Assembly: GCA_028698305.1 (NCBI GenBank)
Contig: JAQVDN010000002.1
Location: 1-64,000 of the forward strand
From: Candidatus Altimarinota bacterium
GTDB lineage: Bacteria > Patescibacteriota > Gracilibacteria > BD1-5 > UBA6164
Direction: 5' to 3'
Length of the DNA stretch: 64,000 bases
In this document: positions 2,175 through 58,275 of the stretch, piece by piece
Layout: each line of letters begins with the position of its first letter
How positions within the stretch are numbered: position 1 is the stretch's first letter
Notes under the pieces: generated by a model
Seen by the model: the letters and a program-made list of their open reading frames with translations, nothing else
What the model was told of the DNA's origin: nothing
Database searches by the model: none
Made by a program: the position numbers and the translations under genes

Positions 2175-3749
2175 ATGGAAACAAACTTAACATTACTTAT
2201 ATTTTTTTCAATACTTCCGATAATAAATAAATTTCTTTTTTGGTTTTATGTTATACAACTAAAAGAATACAGGTTGGATAGATTTAGAGAATATATATCG
2301 ACTTTACAGTGAAAAAATGCTATTTTAAACTTTTGGGCTTATATAGAAATCCCAGTTTTTATAGTTGTGTTTTGATATTATTTAAACACAGTTTTTGAAA
2401 ATACTATTTATAGTGTAGTTATTACTCTTTTATTTTTAGAAACTATATTTGTTATATCAAAAATAATTAGAAAACAATTATTTTTTCCAAAAATAACTTC
2501 TAGATTTTTAGTTACTTTTCTTATTTTTATTTTTGTAGAAATAATACTTTTTACAGTTCTTAAAAATGAATTTTTATTTATATTGTTAAACTTGGTTTTA
2601 CCATTTTTATTTATATTTTTAAGTGTTTTTATAAGTTTACCAATAGTAAATAAAATAAAAAAGAAAAAGCTGCTTGAAGCAAAACTCAAATCAAAGATAA
2701 TAACTAATCCAATAAAAATTGGTATTACTTGAAGTTATTGAAAATCAAGTGTAAAAGAATATCTAAGTCAAATCCTAGAACAAAATCACAAAGTTTTAAA
2801 GACTCCAAAAAATATAAATACTGAGCTTTGAATAAGTGATTTAATAATCAAAAAACTTAAAAATAAATTTGAGTATTTTATTGTTGAAATGTGAGCTTAT
2901 AAGATATGAGAAATAGAAACAATTTGAGATATAGTAAATCATAAATATGGTTTTTTAACTGCTATATGAAATCAACATCTTGCACTTTTTTGATGAATAA
3001 AAAACACAATAAAAGGGAAGAGTGAGATAGCAAAAAAAGTACTTGAAAATAAATGAATATTGTATATAAATTGGGATGATAAAAATATAAAAAAAGCTAG
3101 TTTTAATAAAAAACTCAATATAGTTAAGTATGGTATAAAAGATAATTGTGATGCAAAATCAGATATAATTGAAGTCAAAAAAATGATTACAAAATTTGAT
3201 TTTTACTATAAATGAAGTAAAACAACTTTTAAAACTAATCTTATTTGAACACATAACATAATAAATATTACTTGAATATTAGCTTTTTGTTTTGATATAT
3301 GATTAGATAAAGATTATTTAAAAAATGTATTATTAGATCTGAAAATGCCTGAAAATACTTTATGTATTGAGAAATATAAGGATATAATTTTTATAGATGA
3401 TACATACAATTTATCAGAATGATGATTATATGCTTGACTTGAAGCACTTAGTTATTTTAAAGATGTAAATAGAAAAATACTTGTTTTAGATGATATATTG
3501 GAACTTTGAAAAAAATCATGTAAAATACATCATGAAATCTGAAAAAAAATATGAAAAAATAAACTAGTTGATAAGGTATTTTATGTTTGAGTTAACAATA
3601 AAGAAGATTTTATAAAGTGACTTATAAGTTGATGATTTAAAGCATCAAATATAATTTCAGATCTAGATTGGGTTAAAGCATGAGACATCATACTTTTTGA
3701 ATGAAGAAAATCAGGTATACAATTAAATAAGATATTATGAAAAAAATAG
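2175..3749 (+). CDS. murF: MurF-type Mur ligase with N-terminal membrane domain
   Basis: 524 residues. Residues 1-165 are hydrophobic, with about five membrane segments; this is not part of classical MurF. The ligase part follows: ATP loop GITGSYGKSS (near 180), VEMGAYKIGEI, GNQHLALFGG (the HLxxFGS-like MurF signature), GTHNIINITG and FIDDTYNLSEGG. MurF adds D-Ala-D-Ala to the UDP-MurNAc-tripeptide in peptidoglycan synthesis. The membrane anchor suggests ligation at the membrane, where MraY would act next; that is inference. The gene ends with TAG and overlaps the next start by 13 nt, indicating coupling to the DegT gene. Other Mur-ligase-like functions are possible, but the motif set fits MurF best. 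Confidence 0.82.
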
Positions 3750-14040: not shown

Positions 14041-14139
14041 GTATAGGTAAAAAAGTAAAAAGTTATGCAATTAAAAAATAATTTTTTGATTTTAAATTTT
14101 TTAGTTTTTTATATATATTTTATATATTATTATAATATA

Positions 14140-14865
14140 ATGGTTATAACTAAAAAAGCCGTAGAAAATCAAATTTATATTGATAAAATTTGAAACTTAA
14201 TTTTAAGTCTTGATATAGATTTTAAAGATATTTCAAATTATATATTAGCATTTATACATAGATCAATAGTAAATGAAAAACCAGATTTTGCACCAGAGCA
14301 CAATGAAAGATTAGAGTTTTTATGAGATGCTGTTTTAGAACTTGTAGTTACAGATAATCTATTTAATGATTATCCAGAAAAAACAGAATGAGAATTAACA
14401 GATATAAGAAGTGCTATTGTTAGAGGTAGAAATTTATCAAATGTTGCAAAAAAACTCAACTTTAGTGAATATTTATTACTTTGAAAATGAGAAGAAAAAT
14501 CTTGATGAAGAGATAATGATTATTTATTAGCTAATGTAGTTGAAGCTGTCATTGGAGCTATATATGTAGATCTATGATTCATAGAATCTAAAAATTTTAT
14601 AGAAAAACATATATATCCTGTCGTTCATGAAGTAATAAAAAATAATTTAACAAAAGATTATAAAACTACTATTCAAGAATTAGCACAAGCTAATTTTGAT
14701 GTTACTCCAACATATAAAGTATTAGAAGAAATATGACTAGATCATGACAAGATTTTTACTGTTTGAATATATTTTTGAGAAATTTTAAAATGAACTTGAA
14801 AATGATCAAGTAAGAAAAAAGCACAAGAACAAGCAGCATATGATGCTTATTTAAAAATAAAATAA
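14140..14865 (+). CDS. rnc: Ribonuclease III
   Basis: 241 residues. The catalytic domain has the signature HNERLEFLGDAVLELVV near residue 50 (the glycine is TGA) and the acidic second site in LLANVVEAVIGAIYVDLG. The dsRNA-binding domain covers residues 173-240, ending GSSKKKAQEQAAYDAYL. RNase III cuts double-stranded RNA in rRNA and mRNA processing. It starts the rnc-yggT-ftsW-mutS-holA series, all closely spaced. Confidence 0.95.
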
Positions 14866-29708: not shown

Positions 29709-32700
29709 ATGGGAAATATAAATAATATAAATTTATTGACCAAAATCTCCTTAAAAATAGTTATATTTTTGATGTGATTTTGGTCTTTTTTATTTACTAC
29801 TAGTGCATATAATGATGCTTGTTGAGAACAATTACAATCAGCATTTAATACAAACTTAGCAAAAGAAGTTCATGTAGAAAAAACATTTTCTCTAAGCTGA
29901 CTTAATAGTGACAATATAAATACAATATTAACATGATATAATTGATTAGAATATATTTGAATATCATGAAATAATATATTTTTTATACATGATAATAAAT
30001 TAAAAAAAGCAGTTTATCAAAATGGTATTATACAAGATTGAAATCTATTTGATTTTAATGATACTATTAATTCTAAAAATGATATATTAACTATACAAAA
30101 TAATTTTATATATTATAAAAATACCCAAGATAATGATAGTATATATAAATTAAATATATATTGTAATGATACTACTTTAAAATGAGCCAAGATATCAAAT
30201 CCTATACCTAATATTTTAATGAACTATACATATGTTTTTAATGATAATTCAGCTATATATTACAAAGATATATTTTGAAAACTGTATAAAATTAAAAATT
30301 GGTATTATTGAAATGATATAGAACAAAATAACTTAGTAGATACTGGTATATTTATTGATAGTTTTTTATTTTATGATACTAATGAGTATTATTTTTATTA
30401 TACTTTTAATTGAAAAACATATAAATTATATGCATGATATTATAATATAACAACACCTATAAAAACACATGATTTAGCAATAAATACTTATATTTTTCAT
30501 GATAACTCTAATATATATTATTATGATGATATAAATGATATAACTAAGTACACTAGAAAAGATGGAAGTTCTGTTATAGATGATATATTCTTTCATTGAA
30601 AAATAGAAAAATATATAACAAAATATAATAATTTAAATTATTTTACTTATGATTTTTACAATGATTGATTTCCTGAAGTTTATAGAATGTTTAACTCTAA
30701 TTCATTTGAGCAACTAACTGATTTAAGTTGAGTTATACCTTTATTTGTAGATAATAATTTACTTATATATGGTTTAAAACAATATAATGAAGTTTGATTA
30801 ATAGATGAATTATATTCTCTAAAATTAGATTGAAAAGTTAATTATCCACCTAGTTCATCAAGTTCTTCTTGATGATGAACCATAACTAACCCAGTATGAG
30901 AAACTTCTCAAACAAATACAAACCAAACAATAAATTCAGATCTAATTAATCAAAAAATTTTAGATCACTATAAAACAAAGGCTATTAGAGAAAAAGAAGC
31001 AATAAAATCTTCTCATGAGTGAGATCCTGTTATGTTATACTCTTGAGAATTTATTTATGAAAATACTTTATTAAATTATCCTTGAGTTTGATTACCATTC
31101 TCTTTTGATATAACTTACAAAAACCAAAGTCGTTATTCTTGACCTATATGAAATAATTTTGATTTTTCATATAATCAATATCTTACAGAAGAAGAAAATG
31201 GAGATGTTAAATATTATGATTGAAAACTTTGAGTTGTATTATTTGAATATGATGAAGAAAATGAAGAATTTAAGTATAATACAAGCACAAAATCACAATT
31301 ATTTTTTGATGGTGAGTTTTATAGAATAGTTAAAAATAACACTTTAACTTATTATTTCAATCTAGATTTAAAACTTGATTGAATTGAAGATAATTTTTTC
31401 AATTTTATATTTATAGAACATGATGATACAGAAAAAATTGAAAAAATAATTGATACTCTTTGAAATGAATATTTATTTAGTTATAGATCAGATACTAGAC
31501 TGGAAAAAATAATAGATTTTAATCAAAATGAAGTTATTTTTGATTATTATAATACTGATGATGAATTAGGTTGACTTTATGATTTAAAATCTATAACAAT
31601 TAAAAACTGAAATGAAGAAAAAACTACTAGTTTTGAATATACAAAATGAGATGATTTTGATAGTTCTCACAATATAACAAAACTAATAGATTTTGCTTGA
31701 AATGTGTATGTAGAAAATACATATGATTATTTTGATAGAGTAAATGTTCAAAAATTTGGTGAATGAGATATAACATACAATTACACACTTAGTGATGATG
31801 AAAGCTATATATTAAAAAATGAAGTTATAACTAGAGTATGAGATAAGTTTATATACACATACAATCCTTGATGACAAATATTATCAAAAGAGATATTTAA
31901 AAAATCATGAGAAAGTTATGAATATACTTATGAATATGACTCAAACAACAATTTAATAAAAGAAACAAATCCACTATGAAATGGTTTTGCATATAGTTAT
32001 GACTCAAACAATAATCTAATAGAAAGAAGACAAAAAGCAGATACAAGTTTAGAAAATAGTACAAATGATATAGTTGTATCTTTTGAATATGATGATGTTT
32101 TTAATAAGAAAACAAAAGAAATACTTCCAAATGGAACTATTATAAACTACACTTTAGATGATTTTGGAAATGTATTACAAAAAGAAACTATTGCTTGAAA
32201 TATAAAAATAAATGAGTTTTTTGAATATAATGAATTATGACAATTAGTTTCAAAAACAGATTGAAATTGAAACATAGTTAATTTTGAATATACAAACTGA
32301 AATCTAAGTAAGATAATAAAAAACTGAACTAATGAAAATATAGAAACAAATTTTGAATATGATTCAAAATGAAATATCACAAAGATAACTGATGGAGAAT
32401 GAAACATAACTAATCTAAGTTATGATAATTTTAATTTACTTGTTTCTCAAACGACTCCAAGCTGAATAGAAACAAATTTTGAATACAATTCTCTAAACAA
32501 AAAAACAAAAGAAACTATTATCTTAAATGATACAACAGATAAAATAACTAGTTTTGAATACGATATACTAGATAATCCTACAAAAGTAACTACAAATATA
32601 GATTGAGAGAAAAATAAAACTATAGTTACAAAATATGATAATGATAATAGGATAATAGAAGCTCAAAATTGATCTAATGCAAAAAATACATTTCTATATG

Positions 32701-35700
32701 ATGAAAATGGGAATATAACAAAAAAATCTACTATTTTAAATAACAATACAGAGATAATTACAAGTTATGTATATGATTTAAACGATAGATTAATTAAACA
32801 AATTAATCCAAATGGTAGTGAAATAAATTTTGAGTATGACTTGTTTGATAGACTAATCAAAGCTACAAATAGTGACAATAGTTATATTACAAACACATAT
32901 GACAATATGTGAAATCTACTTGAAACAAGAAGTTATGATTCAAGTGATAATCTAGTTTCAAAAACAAGTTTTGAATATGACAAACTAAGCAGAAAAACAA
33001 AACAAATAAATTATTTACTTGAAGAAAATAAGCAAATAATTACAAGATTTGTTTATGATAATAATAGCAATATATTATCACAAACTAATGCACTAAACCA
33101 AACTACAAGTTTTGTATATGATAGTTTTAATAGACTAATAAAAACTACTGATAATTTATGAAATATAGTAGAATACAAATACAACAAAAATGATAAAATT
33201 ACAGAAGAAATTCTTACTTGAACAAATGGGAAAATACTAAAAAAAGAATATTATTATGATAGTGATGGTAGACTTGAAACATTTCATGACGATAACTGAA
33301 AAATAAATAGTTACAGCTATAATAAATTATGACAATTAATTAGTTATAATGACTGAAATAGTATTACAAGTTATACTTATGATTTACTTTGAAATAAATT
33401 AAGTGAATCAGTCCCTCACCCTAACCCTCTCCCAGAGGGCGAGGGAATAGCTACAACAAACTATGAGTACGATGAAAACTCAAATATGATTAAACTCATA
33501 GATGCAAACTGAAACGAAACAAACTATGAATATGATGAATTAAACAGACTCATTAAACAAACATATGCAGACAATTCATACATAAGTTATACATATGATA
33601 TAAATTCAAATGTAAGTAAGAAAATTGACTGAAATTGAACAATTATAAACTACATTTATGATTCTCAAAATAGATTAATAGAAAAAAATATAATTAATTG
33701 AGAAAATGTAATATGAATAACAAAAGAAAATTTTGAATATGATTCACTATGAAGACTAACAAAAACAACAAATAACGAATGAAGTGAAACTTTGTTTAGT
33801 TATGATAGTCTAAATAGATTAATAAGTGAAACACAAAGCCCTCACCCTAACCCTCTCCCAGAGGGCGAGGGAATAAAAACCATAAACTACACATACGACT
33901 CTCTATGAAACAAAACAAGTATAAGTATAGATTGAAAAACTACATCATATAAGTATGATTCAAACTCTAGACTAGAAACAATTTCAAGAGAAAACCAAGA
34001 AATAGTTAGATATAATTATGATAGTCTAAACTTATTAAGCCAAACATACTGAAACTGACAAATAACAACATATTGATATGATGAAAATTACAATAGATTA
34101 ACAAATCTAAATACTCTAAATAAAAACTTTACTTATGAATATACATCAAATAATCTAATACAATCAAATGGATATGAAAATTATACATATGATGAAAAAA
34201 ATCAGTTAATACAAGTACAATTTAATACTAGATTTGTAAACAAAGATTTCATAGATTATAGTTATGATGCTATGTGAAATAGATTAAATGAAATGTATTG
34301 AAGAATAAATAAAAAATGAAATATAAACTATTTCAAAGATTTTGAATATACAACAAATAATCTAAATCAATATACAAACAAATCCTTCTCTGTGCAAGAC
34401 TCCGAAGGACAAGCAACAAATGAAGAAGATTCCTTCTTCGCTGAAAGCTACGAAGGACTCGTGGAAGATATTGAATCTTTGAATACGACAGAATCAGAAC
34501 CACTTGTAGAACTTAACTGAAAACTAATCTACGACAAGAATTGAAATATGATTTGAAATATGCTGAATAACAAGAGACAATATATTTACTCTTATGATTA
34601 CAAAAATAGATTAGTAAAAGTAGAAAAAACAATCTACAAAAAAGTAGAGTGAAGTGAAACAAATGAAATAGAGGAAATAACAAAGATAATACAATATAGA
34701 TATGATAATCTAGACCGTAGAATACAAAAGATATATAATAACGGAAGCTATACAAACTACTACTATTCAAACAAAGATATAATCCTAGAAAAAAACTACA
34801 CAAAACCAAATACAAATGGACTATCTAAACTAAAAACAAGTAAATACTATACAAATTGAAATCAAATAGATGATATTCTCGCTATGGAAAAAGTAGATTA
34901 TAAAACTAGAAAAGTACAAGAAGAATACATAAACAAAAAATGACAAACAAAAACAAGAAATATAACAGAAAACTACACAGAAACAAATACTTATTATTAC
35001 CATAAAAATCATCTAAACTCAATAGTTGCAATTACAGACAATCTAGGTAATATACTTGAAGAGTATGAATATGATGTATTTTGAAAACCATATAGTAAAG
35101 ATTTACTTACTTGAAAAGTAACAAACTTAAAACAATCAAGTATTTGAAATACTAGATTATTCACAGGAAGAGAATATGAAAGATGATTACAACTATACTA
35201 CAACAGAGCTAGATACTACAATCCAGAACTAGGTAGATTTATATCTAGAGATCCGATTGATATATCTGATGATGTGAATTTGTATAGTTATGTGGGGAAT
35301 AGTGTCGTGAGTTATAGTGATGTTTTGGGATTTGCTAAACAATTTTGAATTAATTTTGTTAGGGAGTATGATAAGTTTTTAAAACTAGAAGATGAATATA
35401 ATATAATTAATAATAAATTTAATCGTGCATTAATAAATCCTTTAGATTATAAAACATCTGAATTACTAAGACCATTAAGAAATCAAGCTTATTTTGAATT
35501 AATAGCACAAGAAGAAATTACTAAAGAATTACATTATAGTAGGAATAAGTATAATGTTGATGCTTGAGATAATATTAGTTTAGTTAATGGTAATAAATGG
35601 TGAGAGTTACCATTATATTTATCATGGTATCATCAACAAACAGCTAGTATTATTCAACCAAATAGAAAGTTTATTTCAAATGATTGACATTATGAAACTA

Positions 35701-35876
35701 TATATGAATATAATTGAAGTATAGAAAATGATATTAGAGATATATGAACTTATAATATATTTGATCCAGTAATTGATGCTGATAATCATATTAAATATGA
35801 TATTGATCCATACTATAAATGGTGAAATTGATCAGCTGATGATACAAATTGGATTAATAGACATACTTGATTTTAA
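29709..35876 (+). CDS. Rhs/YD-repeat polymorphic toxin-like protein
   Basis: 2,055 residues. Hydrophobic N-terminus (export signal or anchor, 1-37), a Tyr/Asn-rich region with WD-like repeats to 370, a Ser/Gly linker, then DPVMLYSGEFIYE near 437, the usual opening of an Rhs shell. Dozens of YD repeats follow (forms like NFEYDSKGNITKITD) to about 1,820. The Rhs core hallmark is RARYYNPELGRFISRDPI near 1,830. The last ~190 residues, after YSYVGN, form a unique tip (AKQFGINFVREYDKF to the end WINRHTGF) of unknown type, presumably the toxin. Two copies of a GC-rich palindromic repeat are translated in frame. The export route is not visible. Confidence 0.88.
33413..33445 (+). repeat. 33-bp GC-rich palindromic element, copy A (in rhs frame)
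   Basis: Starts CCCTCACCCTAACCC and ends GAGGGCGAGGG; it contains the perfect inner palindrome CCCTCTCCCAGAGGG. Within the AT-rich gene it is translated as PHPNPLPEGEG between two YD repeats. Identical to copy B. Confidence 0.9.
33839..33871 (+). repeat. 33-bp GC-rich palindromic element, copy B (in rhs frame)
   Basis: All 33 bases are the same as copy A, 426 bp further on, in the same reading frame, again giving PHPNPLPEGEG between YD repeats. Confidence 0.9.
34380..34470 (+). other. GC-richer in-frame insert in rhs with palindromic parts
   Basis: A block encoding an acidic, non-YD stretch (SFSVQDSEGQATNEEDSFF and on). It includes CTTCGCTGAAAGCTACGAAG, a near-palindrome, and two more TCC-GAAGGA type arms. 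Composition and codon use differ from the flanking YD repeats, so it is probably another inserted repeat element. Confidence 0.45.
34515..35300 (+). repeat. Direct repeat, Rhs tip copy 1
   Basis: 786 bp encoding the last YD repeats and Rhs core (from NGKLIYDKNG to LYSYVGN). It aligns without gaps to 36291-37076, with scattered substitutions. Homology stops exactly where the variable toxin tip begins. Confidence 0.93.
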
Positions 35877-42731: not shown

Positions 42732-43178
42732 ATGCAAACTACTTTAATATTATTAAAACCAGATACAATTGAAAGAGGATTAATTGGTGAAGTTATTTCT
42801 AGAATTGAAGCTAAAGGATTAAAAATCAGTGGATTAAAAATGATGCAATTAGATGAAGCTATCATCGAAGAACATTATGATTTCTTAAAAGATAAACCAT
42901 TTTTTCCTGGAATTAAAAAATATATGACTAGAACTCCTGTTGTTGCTATCGCTGCTACTTGAGTAAATGCTGTTGCAACTGTTAGAATGTTGACTGGTGC
43001 TACAAATCCAGCTGAAGCTTTACCAGGTTCTATTAGAGGTGATTTTGGTTTAACTATTGATGCAAATATCATTCATGCATCTGATACTCCAGAAAATGCT
43101 GCAATTGAATTAAACAGATTTTTTAAAGGACAAGATGTATTTAACTATACAAGAGTTATTGACCAAGTAATTTCATAA
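42732..43178 (+). CDS. ndk: Nucleoside diphosphate kinase
   Basis: 148 residues, usual length. TLILLKPDTIERGLIGEVISRIE at the start, RTPVVAIAATGVNAV, GATNPAEALPGSIRGDFGL and the active-site His in NIIHASDTPENA. It transfers phosphate between NTPs and NDPs by a phospho-His intermediate. Only one of eleven glycines is TGA (position 77, in ATGVNAV); the rest are GGA or GGT, similar to rpmF and unlike neighbours. Single gene with possible promoter and a clear terminator. Confidence 0.96.
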
Positions 43179-46929: not shown

Positions 46930-48414
46930 ATGAAATTATTAAGAATATTAATAATTTTGTTTTTTGTTTCTATTTCATTTCAAGCTAATGCTTGATATCA
47001 AGATATAGATTCAAAAACAAAATTGGTTTATGAAAAATTTTATTCTCAAATAAAAACAAAATATAAATCTGATGATTGATTATCATATTTATATTTATTA
47101 AACGAGACTTTAAGTAAGATATGAGATATATGAAGAATAAATAAAAATAATGAAAAAATTTTCTTTGATTTACAAAAATTAAATAGTGAAAAAATCTTCA
47201 CTATAGAATTTGATAATAAACAAAAAATAAATAAACAAAAAATATCTAATAATAATTTATTAAATAAATATAAAATAGTTTCATATAATAATGATGCCTT
47301 AATAATAGAAGATTGAATATGGTATACTTATAGTTTTAAAAATAAATATTATTTTGAAGATGAATCAAAAATAAACAAAGAAAACCTAATTTATAACTGA
47401 TTATATGATGAAAATATATTCATTTATTATGATAATGAAAATAATTTAAATTTTATTAAAGAATATAAAAAAGTAAAAATCGTTAGTGATGATTTAATAT
47501 ATTGATTTCCAAACAAATATAATTTATTAAAAATTCTCAAAAATAATAAGATACTTAACTCGTCAAGAGATGATGATAATTATTTTAAAATATTGGAAGT
47601 TTTATCTAAACAATTAACAAAAGATATATATAATAATGATGAAAAAATAAGAATAATATATGATTATATATTAAAAAATATAAGTTATTCTATAGATTTT
47701 ACTATGGAAGATTATGAGATATTTTCCTGAATTGAAACATATATAAATAAATCATGAGTTTGTGAATGATATGTAGAATTATTTAATTTAATGTTATGAT
47801 TCAATAATATAGATTCGCAAATCATTATATGAGATGTTATCGATGCAATAGATTTTCCAAAGATATGACATGCTTGGATAAAGATAGGTGATTATTATTA
47901 TGACATAACTTTTGATGACCCAGTTTGAACAACAAAAACAAAAACTGTTGAAGAATATCATTATTATAAACTACCTGAAGATATTTTTTATACAAATAGA
48001 TTTAATAAATGTAAAACTCCTGAAAACTTAAAAACTTCTTCCTTAGAATATAGAAAAAATTTGATTAAAACAAATCTATCAAAATTGATAACAAAATATA
48101 AAAATGATGATTATAATTTACTTAAACCTTTTATATTCAAAGAAAAATATGGTTTAGACCCTGTAAAAACAGTAACAGCAAATGATATAATAGAGGCTAT
48201 ATGATATAAAGATATGAACAATTATGAAATAATAATTGATTGAACTAAAAAAAGTGTAAAAAGTTTAAATTACTTACCAATTAAAGACGAAACAATAGAA
48301 ATATTTTTAGAACAAATAAATTTCAATTTAGATTGATATATGATTTTAAATTGGCATAAAGATAATTGAGAAACTGAATTTATTATAGCTAATAATATAG
48401 TTTATTATGATTAA
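46930..48414 (+). CDS. Secreted transglutaminase-like protein
   Basis: 494 residues. Signal peptide (LLRILIILFFVSISFQANA). After a charged region of about 230 residues, a papain-like transglutaminase core: KSGVCEGYVELFNLML (catalytic Cys near 276), PKIGHAWIKIGD (His near 310) and YYYDITFDDPVG (Asp). In bacteria such domains act as peptidases or cross-linking enzymes in the envelope. The C-terminal 130 residues are unassigned. It follows the CtpA-like protease closely, so both may process or modify the same surface proteins. Confidence 0.82.
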
Positions 48415-48463
48415 AAATTAATTTTTAACAAATATTTAACATAAAAAAATACCTATATTTGAT

Positions 48464-48490
48464 TTGAATAAATTATATGTACAATATAAT
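48464..48490 (+). promoter_or_regulatory. Possible promoter of a small transcript
   Basis: TTGAAT (48464) and TATAAT (48485), spacer 15 nt, or TTTGAA with 16. It would start a transcript near 48497. Confidence 0.45.
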
Positions 48491-48496
48491 TGTCTA

Positions 48497-48677
48497 TTTT
48501 CTACTAATGAGCTTAAAAATGGCAAAACTTAAATTTGGGCCACCGCCATGCAATTATTTCATGCTTCAACAAATGAAAAAAAGGGAAAATAACAACCAAA
48601 AAGGGGGACAAAAACCTATCGAGAAGAAAAAATGATTTTCTTCTCGGAAAAAAAAGCCAGGCTTCGCCTGGCTTTTT
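48497..48677 (+). ncRNA. Candidate small RNA or short-ORF transcript
   Basis: Bounded by the promoter at 48464-48490 and a terminator at 48651-48677. It includes GGGCCACCGCC, a G-rich AAAGGGGGAC stretch and an 11-bp hairpin (CGAGAAGAAAA at 48620), all GC-richer than the surroundings. No known RNA class is recognised. An alternative is a short protein from ATG 48519 (begins MAKLKFGPPPCNYFML); that frame stays open through the terminator into rimO, which argues against a normal end. The rest of the 344-nt spacer shows nothing else. Confidence 0.45.
48651..48677 (+). terminator. Strong rho-independent terminator
   Basis: AAAAAGCCAGGC, loop TTC, GCCTGGCTTTTT; the most GC-rich terminator of the window. 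Confidence 0.9.
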
Positions 48678-48758
48678 AATTTCTTAAAATTAAGCTTAAA
48701 CTTGATTTTACAAAACTTGCAAATAAAATGAGTAAAATCTTTAATTATAAATAAAAAA

Positions 48759-50192
48759 ATGAAACAAGTAAATTTTTCAGCAATAAACTTAGGTTGTAAT
48801 AAAAATATGGTAGATACAGAATTTACTATATGAGAAATATTGAAACTAAATAGTAATGAGATAGAAATCAATTTTTATCCAGATCCAGAAGATGAAGAAG
48901 TTGAGTATGTGATAATAAATACTTGCTGATTCTTATCTAGTTCTCGTGATGAAGCAGAAGAAACTATTTGGTATTATGATAATATGTGAAAAAAAGTTAT
49001 CTTGATTGGTTGTTATGTACCAGTAAAAGACGACAGTTTTTTATCTAGTCTAAAAAATTTAGAAGCAGTAGTTCCATATGAAGAAGTAAAAAATACAAGT
49101 AGTATACTTCTAAATAATATCCCTCACCCTAACCCTCTCCCAAAGGGCGAGGGAATAGAACAAAAAATATCTAAATTAAAAACTGGACTTGCAAATCTTA
49201 AAAAAGATAAATTAAAAGCATATTTATCAAGTATAGGTTGAGATCAAATCGGTACAAAAGCACATATTTATTGAACAGAATCAGTTAGAGCATTTTTACA
49301 TAGTTATAAATGATATGAATACCTAAAAATTGCAGAATGATGTAATAATAAATGTAGTTTTTGTATCATCCCAAATATCAGATGAAAACAAAAGTCAAGA
49401 ACTATAGAAGATATACTAGAAGAAGTAAAAATCATGGTTAATTCTTGAATAAAGGAAATAGAAATTATTTCTCAAGATACTACTAGATACTGAGTTGATT
49501 TATATAAAGCTCCATATTTACTAGAATTACTTGAAAAAATAGATGAAATACCTTGAGATTTCAAAATCAGACTTTTCTATATGTATCCAGATATACTTAG
49601 TATGACTCATATAGATAGATTAGCGAACTTAAAAAAACTACTACCATATTTTGATTTTCCATTTCAACATATAAGTCCAAATGTTTTGAAAAATATGAAT
49701 AGATTTTATGATGATAGTCATATATCAAAAATCATAGATTATATCAAAGAAAAATTCCCAAATAATTTCTTCCATACAAATTTCATAATTGGTTTTCCAT
49801 GAGAAACTGAAAGTGATTTCAATATGCTTTTGGATTTTGCAAAAAAATACGAATTTGATAGTGTTTCAGTTTTTGGGTACCATGATGAACCACTAGCTGA
49901 TAGTAATAAACTATGAAATAAGATAGATGCAAAAACTATTAAAACAAGGGTAAAAACTATTAAAAATATATTAAATGAAATCTACGATAAAAAAGATGCT
50001 CTTAGAGTAAATACAAAACAAAAAGGTTTCATAGAAGAATTATATGATGATTATGCTATAATTAGACCAGAAATAAAAGCTCCAGATATAGATGATTTAG
50101 ATAAGGTGGATTTTGCGGACATAGACTGAGATTTTGACTTGGATCTAGGTATGAAGGTAGATTATGTTTATAGAGGAACTTTAAAAGAATAG
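48759..50192 (+). CDS. rimO: Ribosomal protein S12 methylthiotransferase RimO
   Basis: 477 residues. MTTase N-domain with the three cluster cysteines: INLGCNKNMVD (12), INTCGFL (near 56) and LIGCYVP (near 86). The radical-SAM motif is AEGCNNKCSFCIIPN near 195; then EIISQDTTRYGVDLY, FPFQHISPNVLKNMNR and FIIGFPGETESDF. A TRAM-like end follows. RimO adds methylthio to Asp88 of S12. Oddity: a GC-rich palindromic repeat is inserted in frame (PHPNPLPKGEG, residues 122-132) between the two domains. I start at ATG 48759, which begins the conserved domain. Confidence 0.92.
49121..49153 (+). repeat. 33-bp GC-rich palindromic element, copy C (in rimO frame)
   Basis: Same element as at 33413 and 33839, with one substitution (GAG to AAG). 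It is translated as PHPNPLPKGEG between the MTTase and radical-SAM domains of RimO. Confidence 0.9.
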
Positions 50193-57799: not shown

Positions 57800-57973
57800 A
57801 TGAAAATAATTATCCTTGATTTCACTGATGGAAAAGTAAAAATAATAAATAATATATCTGAAAATCTTCAAATAGAAGAAATAGAAGATATTTTAATAGA
57901 TAAATATAATCTAAAACTATCAAACATACAATTTATGATAGTTCCAGAATTAGAAATAGAAACCCTAAACTAA
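57800..57973 (+). CDS. Small acidic hypothetical protein
   Basis: 57 residues: IIILDFTDGKVKIINNIS, an acidic helix (QIEEIEDILIDKYNLKL) and FMIVPELEIETLN. Regular beta-alpha-beta appearance, no TGA codon. It sits alone between two terminators, so it is probably a genuine small gene; function unknown. Confidence 0.6.
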   Translation: MKIIILDFTDGKVKIINNISENLQIEEIEDILIDKYNLKLSNIQFMIVPELEIETLN

Positions 57974-58004
57974 AAAACTCCCTTATTTCATAAGGGAGTT
58001 TTTT
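57973..58004 (+). terminator. Rho-independent terminator
   Basis: AAAAAACTCCCTTA, loop TTTCA, TAAGGGAGTTTTTT. Confidence 0.87.
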
Positions 58005-58009
58005 CTTTT

Positions 58010-58275
58010 TTAAGTTGACCCCAGCCGAAGCTGGGGGATTGAAAAAGATTCAGTTCGAAGCTGAACTACTAAATAATCTAACCAAATTCCGTACCATTTC
58101 CGGCCAGAAGTAGCCTTTTTGTCCTCGTCGAAGGAACGAAATCAAACCAAAAAATCTTTTTTTCTTTGCCTTGTTTATTTTTGTCATTTTCAGACTTGAT
58201 AAACAAAACGAAATTGTGTCTCCAGAAAAAATCCAGGAGAGCACGAAGTGCAGGAACGAAGTTCCACATATCTGT
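58010..58275. other. GC-richer hairpin-rich non-coding cassette
   Basis: About 265 bp with composition unlike its surroundings. It holds several short perfect hairpins, most with a GAA/CGAA loop: CCCCAGC-CGAA-GCTGGGG (58019), TTCAG-TTCGAAG-CTGAA, GCAC-GAA-GTGC and GGAAC-GAA-GTTCC (58252). Two overlapping minus-strand frames are open for about 60 codons but show no family and no TGA-glycine use. It is probably a mobile repeat or RNA element. From 58276 to 58486 the DNA is ordinary AT-rich spacer with nothing else recognisable. Confidence 0.55.

What the first reader, a model, noticed from the sequence alone, without database searches (positions are those of the whole stretch)
48464..48758. Unknown GC-richer transcript before rimO, with an ORF running through its terminator
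A promoter-like pair, 180 nt of unusual composition with GGGCCACCGCC and two stable hairpins, then the strongest terminator of the window. The frame from ATG 48519 is open through the terminator and joins rimO in frame. It could be a housekeeping or regulatory RNA, a leader that attenuates rimO, or a short peptide gene.
Basis: inference. Interest (0 to 1): 0.58.

Follow-up and report, generated by a model that had tools for sequence, protein, structure and literature searches.

The report
Small protein gene lacking stop codon
In one genus of uncultured Gracilibacteria, which read UGA as glycine, a small positively charged protein seems to be written on a message that ends before any stop codon, the trick E. 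coli uses to hold back its spare ribosome-rescue protein; whether this one rescues ribosomes is untested.

Summary
The unit is real. It is an independent transcription unit, not a rimO leader. It recurs in 5 of the 6 genomes of the window's genus (Candidatus Gracilibacteria, TGA=Gly) and was found nowhere else in 77 order genomes, the GTDB contig scan, viral contigs, phages or plasmids. It has a promoter-like pair, a short 5' leader and a 37-41 codon basic ORF with coding-type substitutions (P about 0.01). Pre-terminator hairpins and an intrinsic terminator follow. In 4 of 5 genomes the ORF meets no TAA/TAG before the terminator stem (in one of these only if a T-run frame break is overlooked; in another a TAA lies in the U-tract); in the fifth a TAG sits at the base of hairpin 1. 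Elsewhere, 22 of 22 gene-adjacent terminators have the stop at or before the stem-loop. The mRNA should therefore be non-stop, as in arfA and brfA. The genus has SmpB, tmRNA (partly as contig-edge fragments) and RNase III (seen in the window), but only RF1; no RF2, ArfB or ArfA was detected. Best reading: a genus-restricted, trans-translation-controlled small protein, perhaps an RF1-dependent backup rescue factor. Architecture is shown; function is inferred. No sequence relation to ArfA was found.

The parts
48463..48490 (+). promoter-like pair TTTGAA - 16 nt - TATAAT
   Evidence: sequence; similar pair at the same place in G025 and G026, weaker in G023 and G024
48491..48518 (+). short 5' leader with TTTTCTACTAA (48497-48507) and weak Shine-Dalgarno GAG (48509-48511)
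   Evidence: TTTTYTACTA-type leader in G024, G025, G026, altered in G023; GGGAG/GGAG 6-10 nt before the start in all 4 relatives
48519..48632 (+). conserved coding part of the small basic ORF, 38 codons, F-x-L...N-x-Q-x-G-G core
   Evidence: profile matches in 5 of 6 genus genomes, E 1e-17 to 6e-30; substitution test P about 0.01
48633..48635 (+). TGA codon read as Gly, at the apex of hairpin 1; the only TGA of the ORF, in frame at the same place in 5 of 5 copies
48620..48646 (+). hairpin 1 (11 bp) inside the ORF, candidate RNase III site
   Evidence: hairpins in all 5 copies, z -2.3 to -6.7, more stable than synonymous recodings in the 4 copies tested
48651..48677 (+). intrinsic terminator; ORF still open, so the predicted mRNA end (about 48680) gives a non-stop message of about 54 codons
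46930..48414 (+). upstream neighbour: transglutaminase-like gene, the constant neighbour of the unit
   Evidence: Pfam PF01841; synteny
48759..50192 (+). downstream rimO, not part of the unit
   Evidence: NCBIfam best match TIGR01125 RimO, below its own cut-off; MiaB/RimO subfamily TIGR00089 above cut-off

Best explanation
The unit is an independent small-protein gene of this Gracilibacteria genus whose mRNA is non-stop by design: hairpin 1 and then the terminator come before any TAA or TAG. Ribosomes that translate it run to the 3' end. tmRNA-SmpB would tag the product for destruction while trans-translation works; when it fails, a basic protein of about 40-55 residues would accumulate. By analogy with ArfA and BrfA the product would be a backup ribosome-rescue adaptor, and since only RF1 was found in this genus it would have to recruit RF1. 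Shown: conservation, coding-type substitutions, hairpins, terminator, absence of a stop before the stem in 4 of 5 (one of them read downstream of a frame break), and presence of tmRNA, SmpB, RF1 and RNase III. Inferred: transcript ends, tagging, RNase III cleavage, ribosome rescue.
For: Relatives in 5 of 6 genus genomes, 0 clear in the other 71 of the order; the same four genomes in the GTDB contig scan, 0 viral contigs, no phage or plasmid match. In-frame synonymous fraction 0.31 against 0.155 in column shuffles, P 0.011; mean BLOSUM of replacements P 0.007; frame 0 best of the forward frames. Before the TGA, lengths differ by multiples of 3 except for one T in G026. No TAA/TAG before the terminator stem in 4 of 5; in G025 a TAG at the base of hairpin 1. 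Control: of 29 terminator-like sites, 22 follow a gene with its stop at or before the stem-loop, 5 are elsewhere, 2 lie inside an ORF, namely this unit and an ORF that relatives show to be a wrong frame. Hairpins retained though rewritten. tmRNA over cut-off in 4 of 6, contig-edge fragments in the other two; SmpB 6 of 6; one RF-1-domain protein per genome in 5 of 6, named RF1 in G000; RNase III at window 14065-14865. Published logic: arfA has a terminator and an RNase III site before its stop, mature ArfA is 52-55 aa, ArfT is 40 aa and works with RF1 or RF2 (PMC6299226, passages); brfA has a terminator inside its ORF (PMC6881298, passages). E. coli arfA folded the same way shows a strong hairpin inside its ORF.
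Against: No homology to ArfA (PF03889 over cut-off in 0 of 48 genomes; local alignment to E. coli ArfA P 0.15-0.52), no Pfam, NCBIfam or PHROGs family and no solved structure. No His in the conserved part, so the Lys-His motif shared by ArfA and BrfA is absent. G025 has an ordinary TAG before the terminator and G023 a TAA in the U-tract. Openness of the tail alone is weak: shuffled tails are open 22-35% of the time, and frame 1 is also open in 4 of 5. The frame is not kept after the TGA (23, 24 or 25 nt to the stem, read). G026 has a frame break in a T run; G022 lacks the unit. The structure model is poor (mean pLDDT 64.3, one helix 13-25). No expression data.
Confidence: 0.35

Rival explanations
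1. An ordinary small basic protein gene whose 3' end has eroded. The protein's important part ends near the GG motif or at hairpin 1, the missing stop is tolerated because tmRNA clears the ribosomes, and nothing is regulated.
For: Frame drifts after the TGA and C-terminal residues are unconserved; one of five copies has a stop and another has one in the U-tract; the unit is lost in G022.
Against: Hairpins are kept in all five copies although their sequence changed and are more stable than synonymous recodings in the four tested; other gene-adjacent terminators in the sampled DNA are preceded by a stop (22 of 22).
Confidence: 0.27
2. A structured small RNA or dual-function RNA: the tandem hairpins and terminator are the product, and the ORF is incidental or secondary.
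For: Strong folding (z -4.14 for 48500-48680; z to -6.7 for the pre-terminator part); leader and RNA structure conserved; ORF broken by one T in G026; tail frame not maintained.
Against: Substitutions are of coding type in exactly this frame; start codon behind a purine-rich leader and 3n length differences in 4 of 5 copies; no Rfam family at gathering score.
Confidence: 0.25
3. The conserved TGA is a real stop here, so the gene is a normal 37-41 codon gene written in the standard code.
For: Sole TGA of the ORF, in frame in 5 of 5 at the end of the conserved frame; other Gly codons are GGN although 829 of 1070 Gly codons in 40 window ORFs are TGA.
Against: The one RF-1-domain protein of G000 is RF1, and no RF2 was detected; TGA-poor usage also occurs in ribosomal protein genes (about 20-60% TGA) and ndk (1 of 11), and the comparator small gene at 58081-58269 is TGA-free, so it fits high expression.
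Confidence: 0.05
4. A leader that attenuates rimO.
For: Lies between a promoter-like pair and rimO; peptide plus hairpins plus terminator is attenuator-like.
Against: Present without rimO downstream in G025 and G026, rimO present without it in G022.
Confidence: 0.03

Closest known systems
ArfA (arfA/yhdL), proteobacterial ribosome-rescue factor
   Same: small basic protein from an ORF with a terminator and hairpin before the stop codon; in tmRNA-positive bacteria; predicted non-stop product of similar size (about 54 codons against 52-55 aa, PMC6299226 passages)
   Different: no sequence similarity above chance; no KGKGS motif (only a loose KKKG[FI]S); no RF2 detected in this genus; 1 of 5 copies has a stop before the terminator
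BrfA (Bacillus)
   Same: intrinsic terminator inside the ORF; genus-restricted distribution (PMC6881298 and PMC8012679, passages)
   Different: no Lys-His motif; BrfA needs RF2, which was not detected here; no sequence match in solved structures
ArfT (Francisella)
   Same: about 40 aa; can work with RF1 (PMC6299226, passages)
   Different: [quoted passage not shown] sequence not compared
leader-peptide attenuators
   Same: short ORF, hairpins, terminator
   Different: no consistent downstream gene

Membership tests
ArfA | homology to the ArfA family (PF03889) | tested here: not met
   0 of 48 family genomes over cut-off; no Pfam match for the small ORF products; alignment to E. coli ArfA at chance
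ArfA / BrfA | ORF open through a hairpin/terminator so that the mRNA is non-stop | tested here: met
   4 of 5 copies by sequence, one of them read downstream of a frame break; the fifth has a TAG at the base of hairpin 1. Transcript ends not tested
ArfA / BrfA | works with RF2 | tested here: not met
   one RF-1-domain protein per genome in 5 of 6 genus genomes, identified as RF1 in G000; no RF2 found for it to work with
ArfA / BrfA | Lys-His motif contacting 16S rRNA | tested here: not met
   no His in the conserved parts of the 4 products counted; motif as described in PMC6881298
ArfA / BrfA | trans-translation present and acting on the message | tested here: inconclusive
   SmpB 6 of 6; tmRNA whole in 4, fragments in 2; action on this message untested
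ArfT | recruits RF1 or RF2 to non-stop ribosomes | not testable with these tools
   needs a biochemical assay
rimO attenuator | always upstream of the regulated gene | tested here: not met
Rfam families | score above gathering threshold | tested here: not met
   0 matches in the window; only sub-threshold matches, mostly over the terminator, in the permissive scan

The most novel reading that the evidence does not exclude
A backup ribosome-rescue factor in a Candidate Phyla Radiation bacterium: made from a non-stop message, controlled by tmRNA, and obliged to use RF1 because RF2 is missing where UGA means glycine; the UGA-encoded glycine itself sits in a KKKG-like motif at the hairpin apex.
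Probability: 0.22. Interest if true: 0.72.

Novelty: new variant of a known kind. Interest (0 to 1): 0.5.

Why it matters
Known adaptor-type rescue factors evolved independently and cannot be found by sequence similarity (stated in PMC6881298 and PMC8012679, passages read). A small conserved ORF that runs into its own terminator in a tmRNA-positive lineage is one of the few sequence-only signs. A lineage in which only RF1 was found tests whether such an adaptor can work without RF2. If the rescue reading is wrong, the case still gives a genus-restricted small gene with a conserved structured 3' end, in genomes where stops otherwise sit at the terminator stem.

Tried and rejected
RimO attenuator: rejected by synteny. 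Known structured RNA: no Rfam family. tmRNA or tRNA: none in the window. Double-glycine leader peptide: the GG lacks the hydrophobic pattern expected upstream (pattern recalled, no call). RF1 split by a frameshift: raised by the short 'open frame', rejected because RF1 is intact in one frame. 'TGA as stop' and 'standard-code gene': raised by TGA poverty, weakened by ribosomal protein genes and by the comparator gene. A second apparent terminator-crossing ORF at 57933-58244 minus was a wrong frame; the conserved gene there is 58081-58269 minus with a TAG stop. Homologues in other genera: none convincing at the family or order level, nor at the syntenic place in the 17 loci printed of the 30 fetched. 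Covariation on hairpin 1 was not scored because its pairing register differs between copies. The covariance model R1 was built but not used for a search. Structure prediction gave low confidence, so no fold search was run.

Full report
What is there. The window uses genetic code 25: its long genes are full of in-frame TGA, and the related contigs are named Candidatus Gracilibacteria. Between a transglutaminase-like gene (46930-48414, PF01841) and rimO (48759-50192) lies a 340-base gap that holds a promoter-like pair (48463-48490), a short leader, an ORF from ATG 48519, an 11-bp hairpin (48620-48646) and an intrinsic terminator (48651-48677). The fold is better than all 200 shuffles (z -4.14). 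The ORF has one TGA (48633) and no TAA or TAG up to and beyond the terminator, and runs on into rimO.

Relatives. A DNA search and profile searches found the unit in 5 of the 6 genomes of the genus: G000 (the window), G023, G024, G025, G026. In the other 71 of 77 genomes of the order nothing convincing was found (best E 0.011, in a frame with stops). A degenerate codon pattern of the core hit 4 records in 84,980 species genomes, the same four relatives, and none among viral contigs. The conserved part of the G023 product had no phage or plasmid match. G022 lacks the unit: there a simple hairpin separates the transglutaminase-like gene from rimO. In G025 and G026 the next gene is a convergent ABC-F ATPase. 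So the unit stands alone and is not a rimO leader.

It is probably translated. Products: window MAKLKFGPPPCNYFMLQQMKKRENNNQKGGQKPIEKKKG..., G025 (TTG start) LPPKGYKPPSFFTLKRLKQQGNNNQNGGKIGEPSSPKGKQG..., G024 MAYKKPSFFTLKKMRNRGNNEQNGGSQGNKIPNEKKKG.... On a 22-codon ungapped block the synonymous fraction is 0.31 against 0.155 for shuffled columns (P 0.011; replacements conservative, P 0.007; third-position share P 0.037) and the other forward frames are clearly worse; most single pairs with the window are not significant. For that block one T of G026's T run was left out. Up to the TGA, lengths differ by multiples of three except for that T. Starts follow GGGAG/GGAG in the four relatives and a weak GAG in the window. 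The conserved parts are basic: K+R 8-10, D+E 1-2, no His in 37-40 residues, four copies counted.

The message seems to lack a stop. Before the terminator stem there is no TAA/TAG in frame in the window, G023, G024 and (downstream of its frame break) G026; G023 has a TAA in the U-tract and G025 a TAG at the base of hairpin 1. As a control I scanned the window and three other stretches of the genus for terminator-like hairpins: 29 sites, of which 22 follow a called gene with its stop from 106 nt before the stem to 15 nt inside the stem-loop, 5 were elsewhere and 2 lay inside an ORF. The stretches are partly homologous and some sites count on both strands, so they are not 29 independent cases. 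One of the two is this unit. The other, at 57975, is a wrong frame: the conserved gene there reads MWNFVPALRALLDFFW... and ends at a TAG in the window, with a stop at the same place in all four genomes where I read it. Against over-reading: shuffled tails are open 22-35% of the time and frame 1 is open in 4 of 5 as well, so openness by itself is weak evidence.

Hairpins. The stretch between the GG motif and the terminator folds far better than dinucleotide shuffles in all five copies (z -4.5, -6.7, -5.2, -2.4, -2.3) and better than 1000 synonymous recodings in the four copies tested. Four copies have a further hairpin upstream of hairpin 1; the window lacks it. The pairing register differs between copies, so the hairpin has been kept while its sequence changed. 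RNase III is encoded in the window (14065-14865), so cleavage there is possible but not shown.

The TGA. It is the only TGA in the ORF and in frame at the same place in 5 of 5, while in 40 window ORFs 829 of 1070 Gly codons are TGA. That looked like a gene in the standard code. Ribosomal protein genes of the same genome use TGA for roughly 20-60% of Gly (named from their sequence, not by a family search), ndk for 1 of 11, and the comparator small gene has none (sequence), so TGA poverty fits high expression. The one RF-1-domain protein per genome (5 of 6; none seen in the fragmented G026) is RF1 in G000, so no factor known to stop at UGA was found.

Rescue background. SmpB is in 6 of 6 genomes. 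tmRNA is over its cut-off in G022, G023, G024 and G026; G025 has a match to 352 of 445 bases and G000 to the last 104 bases at a contig start. The G022 tmRNA contains an open tag-like frame ending ...GGLTAFKNALTPAFVVA, although ARAGORN did not call these tmRNAs. No second RF-1-domain protein such as ArfB was found and no ArfA family match passed its cut-off in 48 genomes.

Mechanism. In E. coli and Bacillus, arfA and brfA carry a terminator (arfA also an RNase III site) before the stop codon, so the product is tagged and destroyed while trans-translation works and accumulates when it fails (passages of PMC6881298, PMC8012679 and PMC6299226). The published adaptors are described as unrelated in sequence and narrowly distributed (PMC6881298), though one later paper calls BrfA homologous to ArfA at 21.5% identity (PMC11633108, passage); ArfT is 40 aa and can use RF1. 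E. coli arfA folded as a control shows the same kind of hairpin inside its ORF. The unit here has that architecture, a predicted non-stop product of about 54 codons in the window, and a plausible vacancy: tmRNA present, no alternative rescue factor detected. I therefore propose an RF1-dependent, tmRNA-controlled rescue adaptor as the best single mechanism, at 0.35 for the statement as a whole and 0.22 for the bold form. It is not an ArfA family member: homology, the RF2 partner and the Lys-His motif all fail. The structure model has mean pLDDT 64.3 with one helix (13-25) and adds nothing decisive.

Literature. Searches showed no paper on a rescue factor or on this small gene in Gracilibacteria; only listings were seen, apart from passages of PMC6881298, PMC8012679, PMC11633108 and PMC6299226. 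The library lacks most subscription journals.

Noticed in passing
window 58081-58269, minus strand: Another genus-restricted small gene, MWNFVPALRALLDFFWRHNFVLFIK..., 63 codons, AGGAG ahead of ATG, stop kept in the four genomes read, no TGA codons, inside a transcript that folds very stably (z -6.24). No PHROGs family.
   Followed up: partly
L068 about 3171-3308 and downstream (G016, another genus of the family): A different small basic ORF (MTKKVVSSPNNKAARKRQDQMASRLAKQKAKG...) downstream of the same transglutaminase-like gene also appears to run through a strong terminator without TAA/TAG; not found in other fetched loci.
   Followed up: partly
window 49120-49154 and inside 29709-35876: A GC-rich inverted repeat (CCCTCACCCTAACCCTCTCCC...GGGCGAGGG) sits in frame inside rimO, giving the peptide PHPNPLPKGEG; the large repeat protein at 29709-35876 carries PHPNPLPEGEG twice. 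G024 rimO lacks it.
   Followed up: no
genus genomes, e.g. window 43183, 62397, 39734: Stop codons usually sit at or inside the base of the terminator stem, often 0-5 nt from it.
   Followed up: partly
window 42732-43178 and G000 ribosomal protein genes: UGA as glycine codon is strongly depleted in ndk (1 of 11) and reduced in ribosomal protein genes against 77% overall, suggesting that UGA-Gly decoding is costly.
   Followed up: partly
L008/L088 (G026): A T8 run breaks the small ORF by one base; assembly error, pseudogene or frameshift site cannot be told apart.
   Followed up: no
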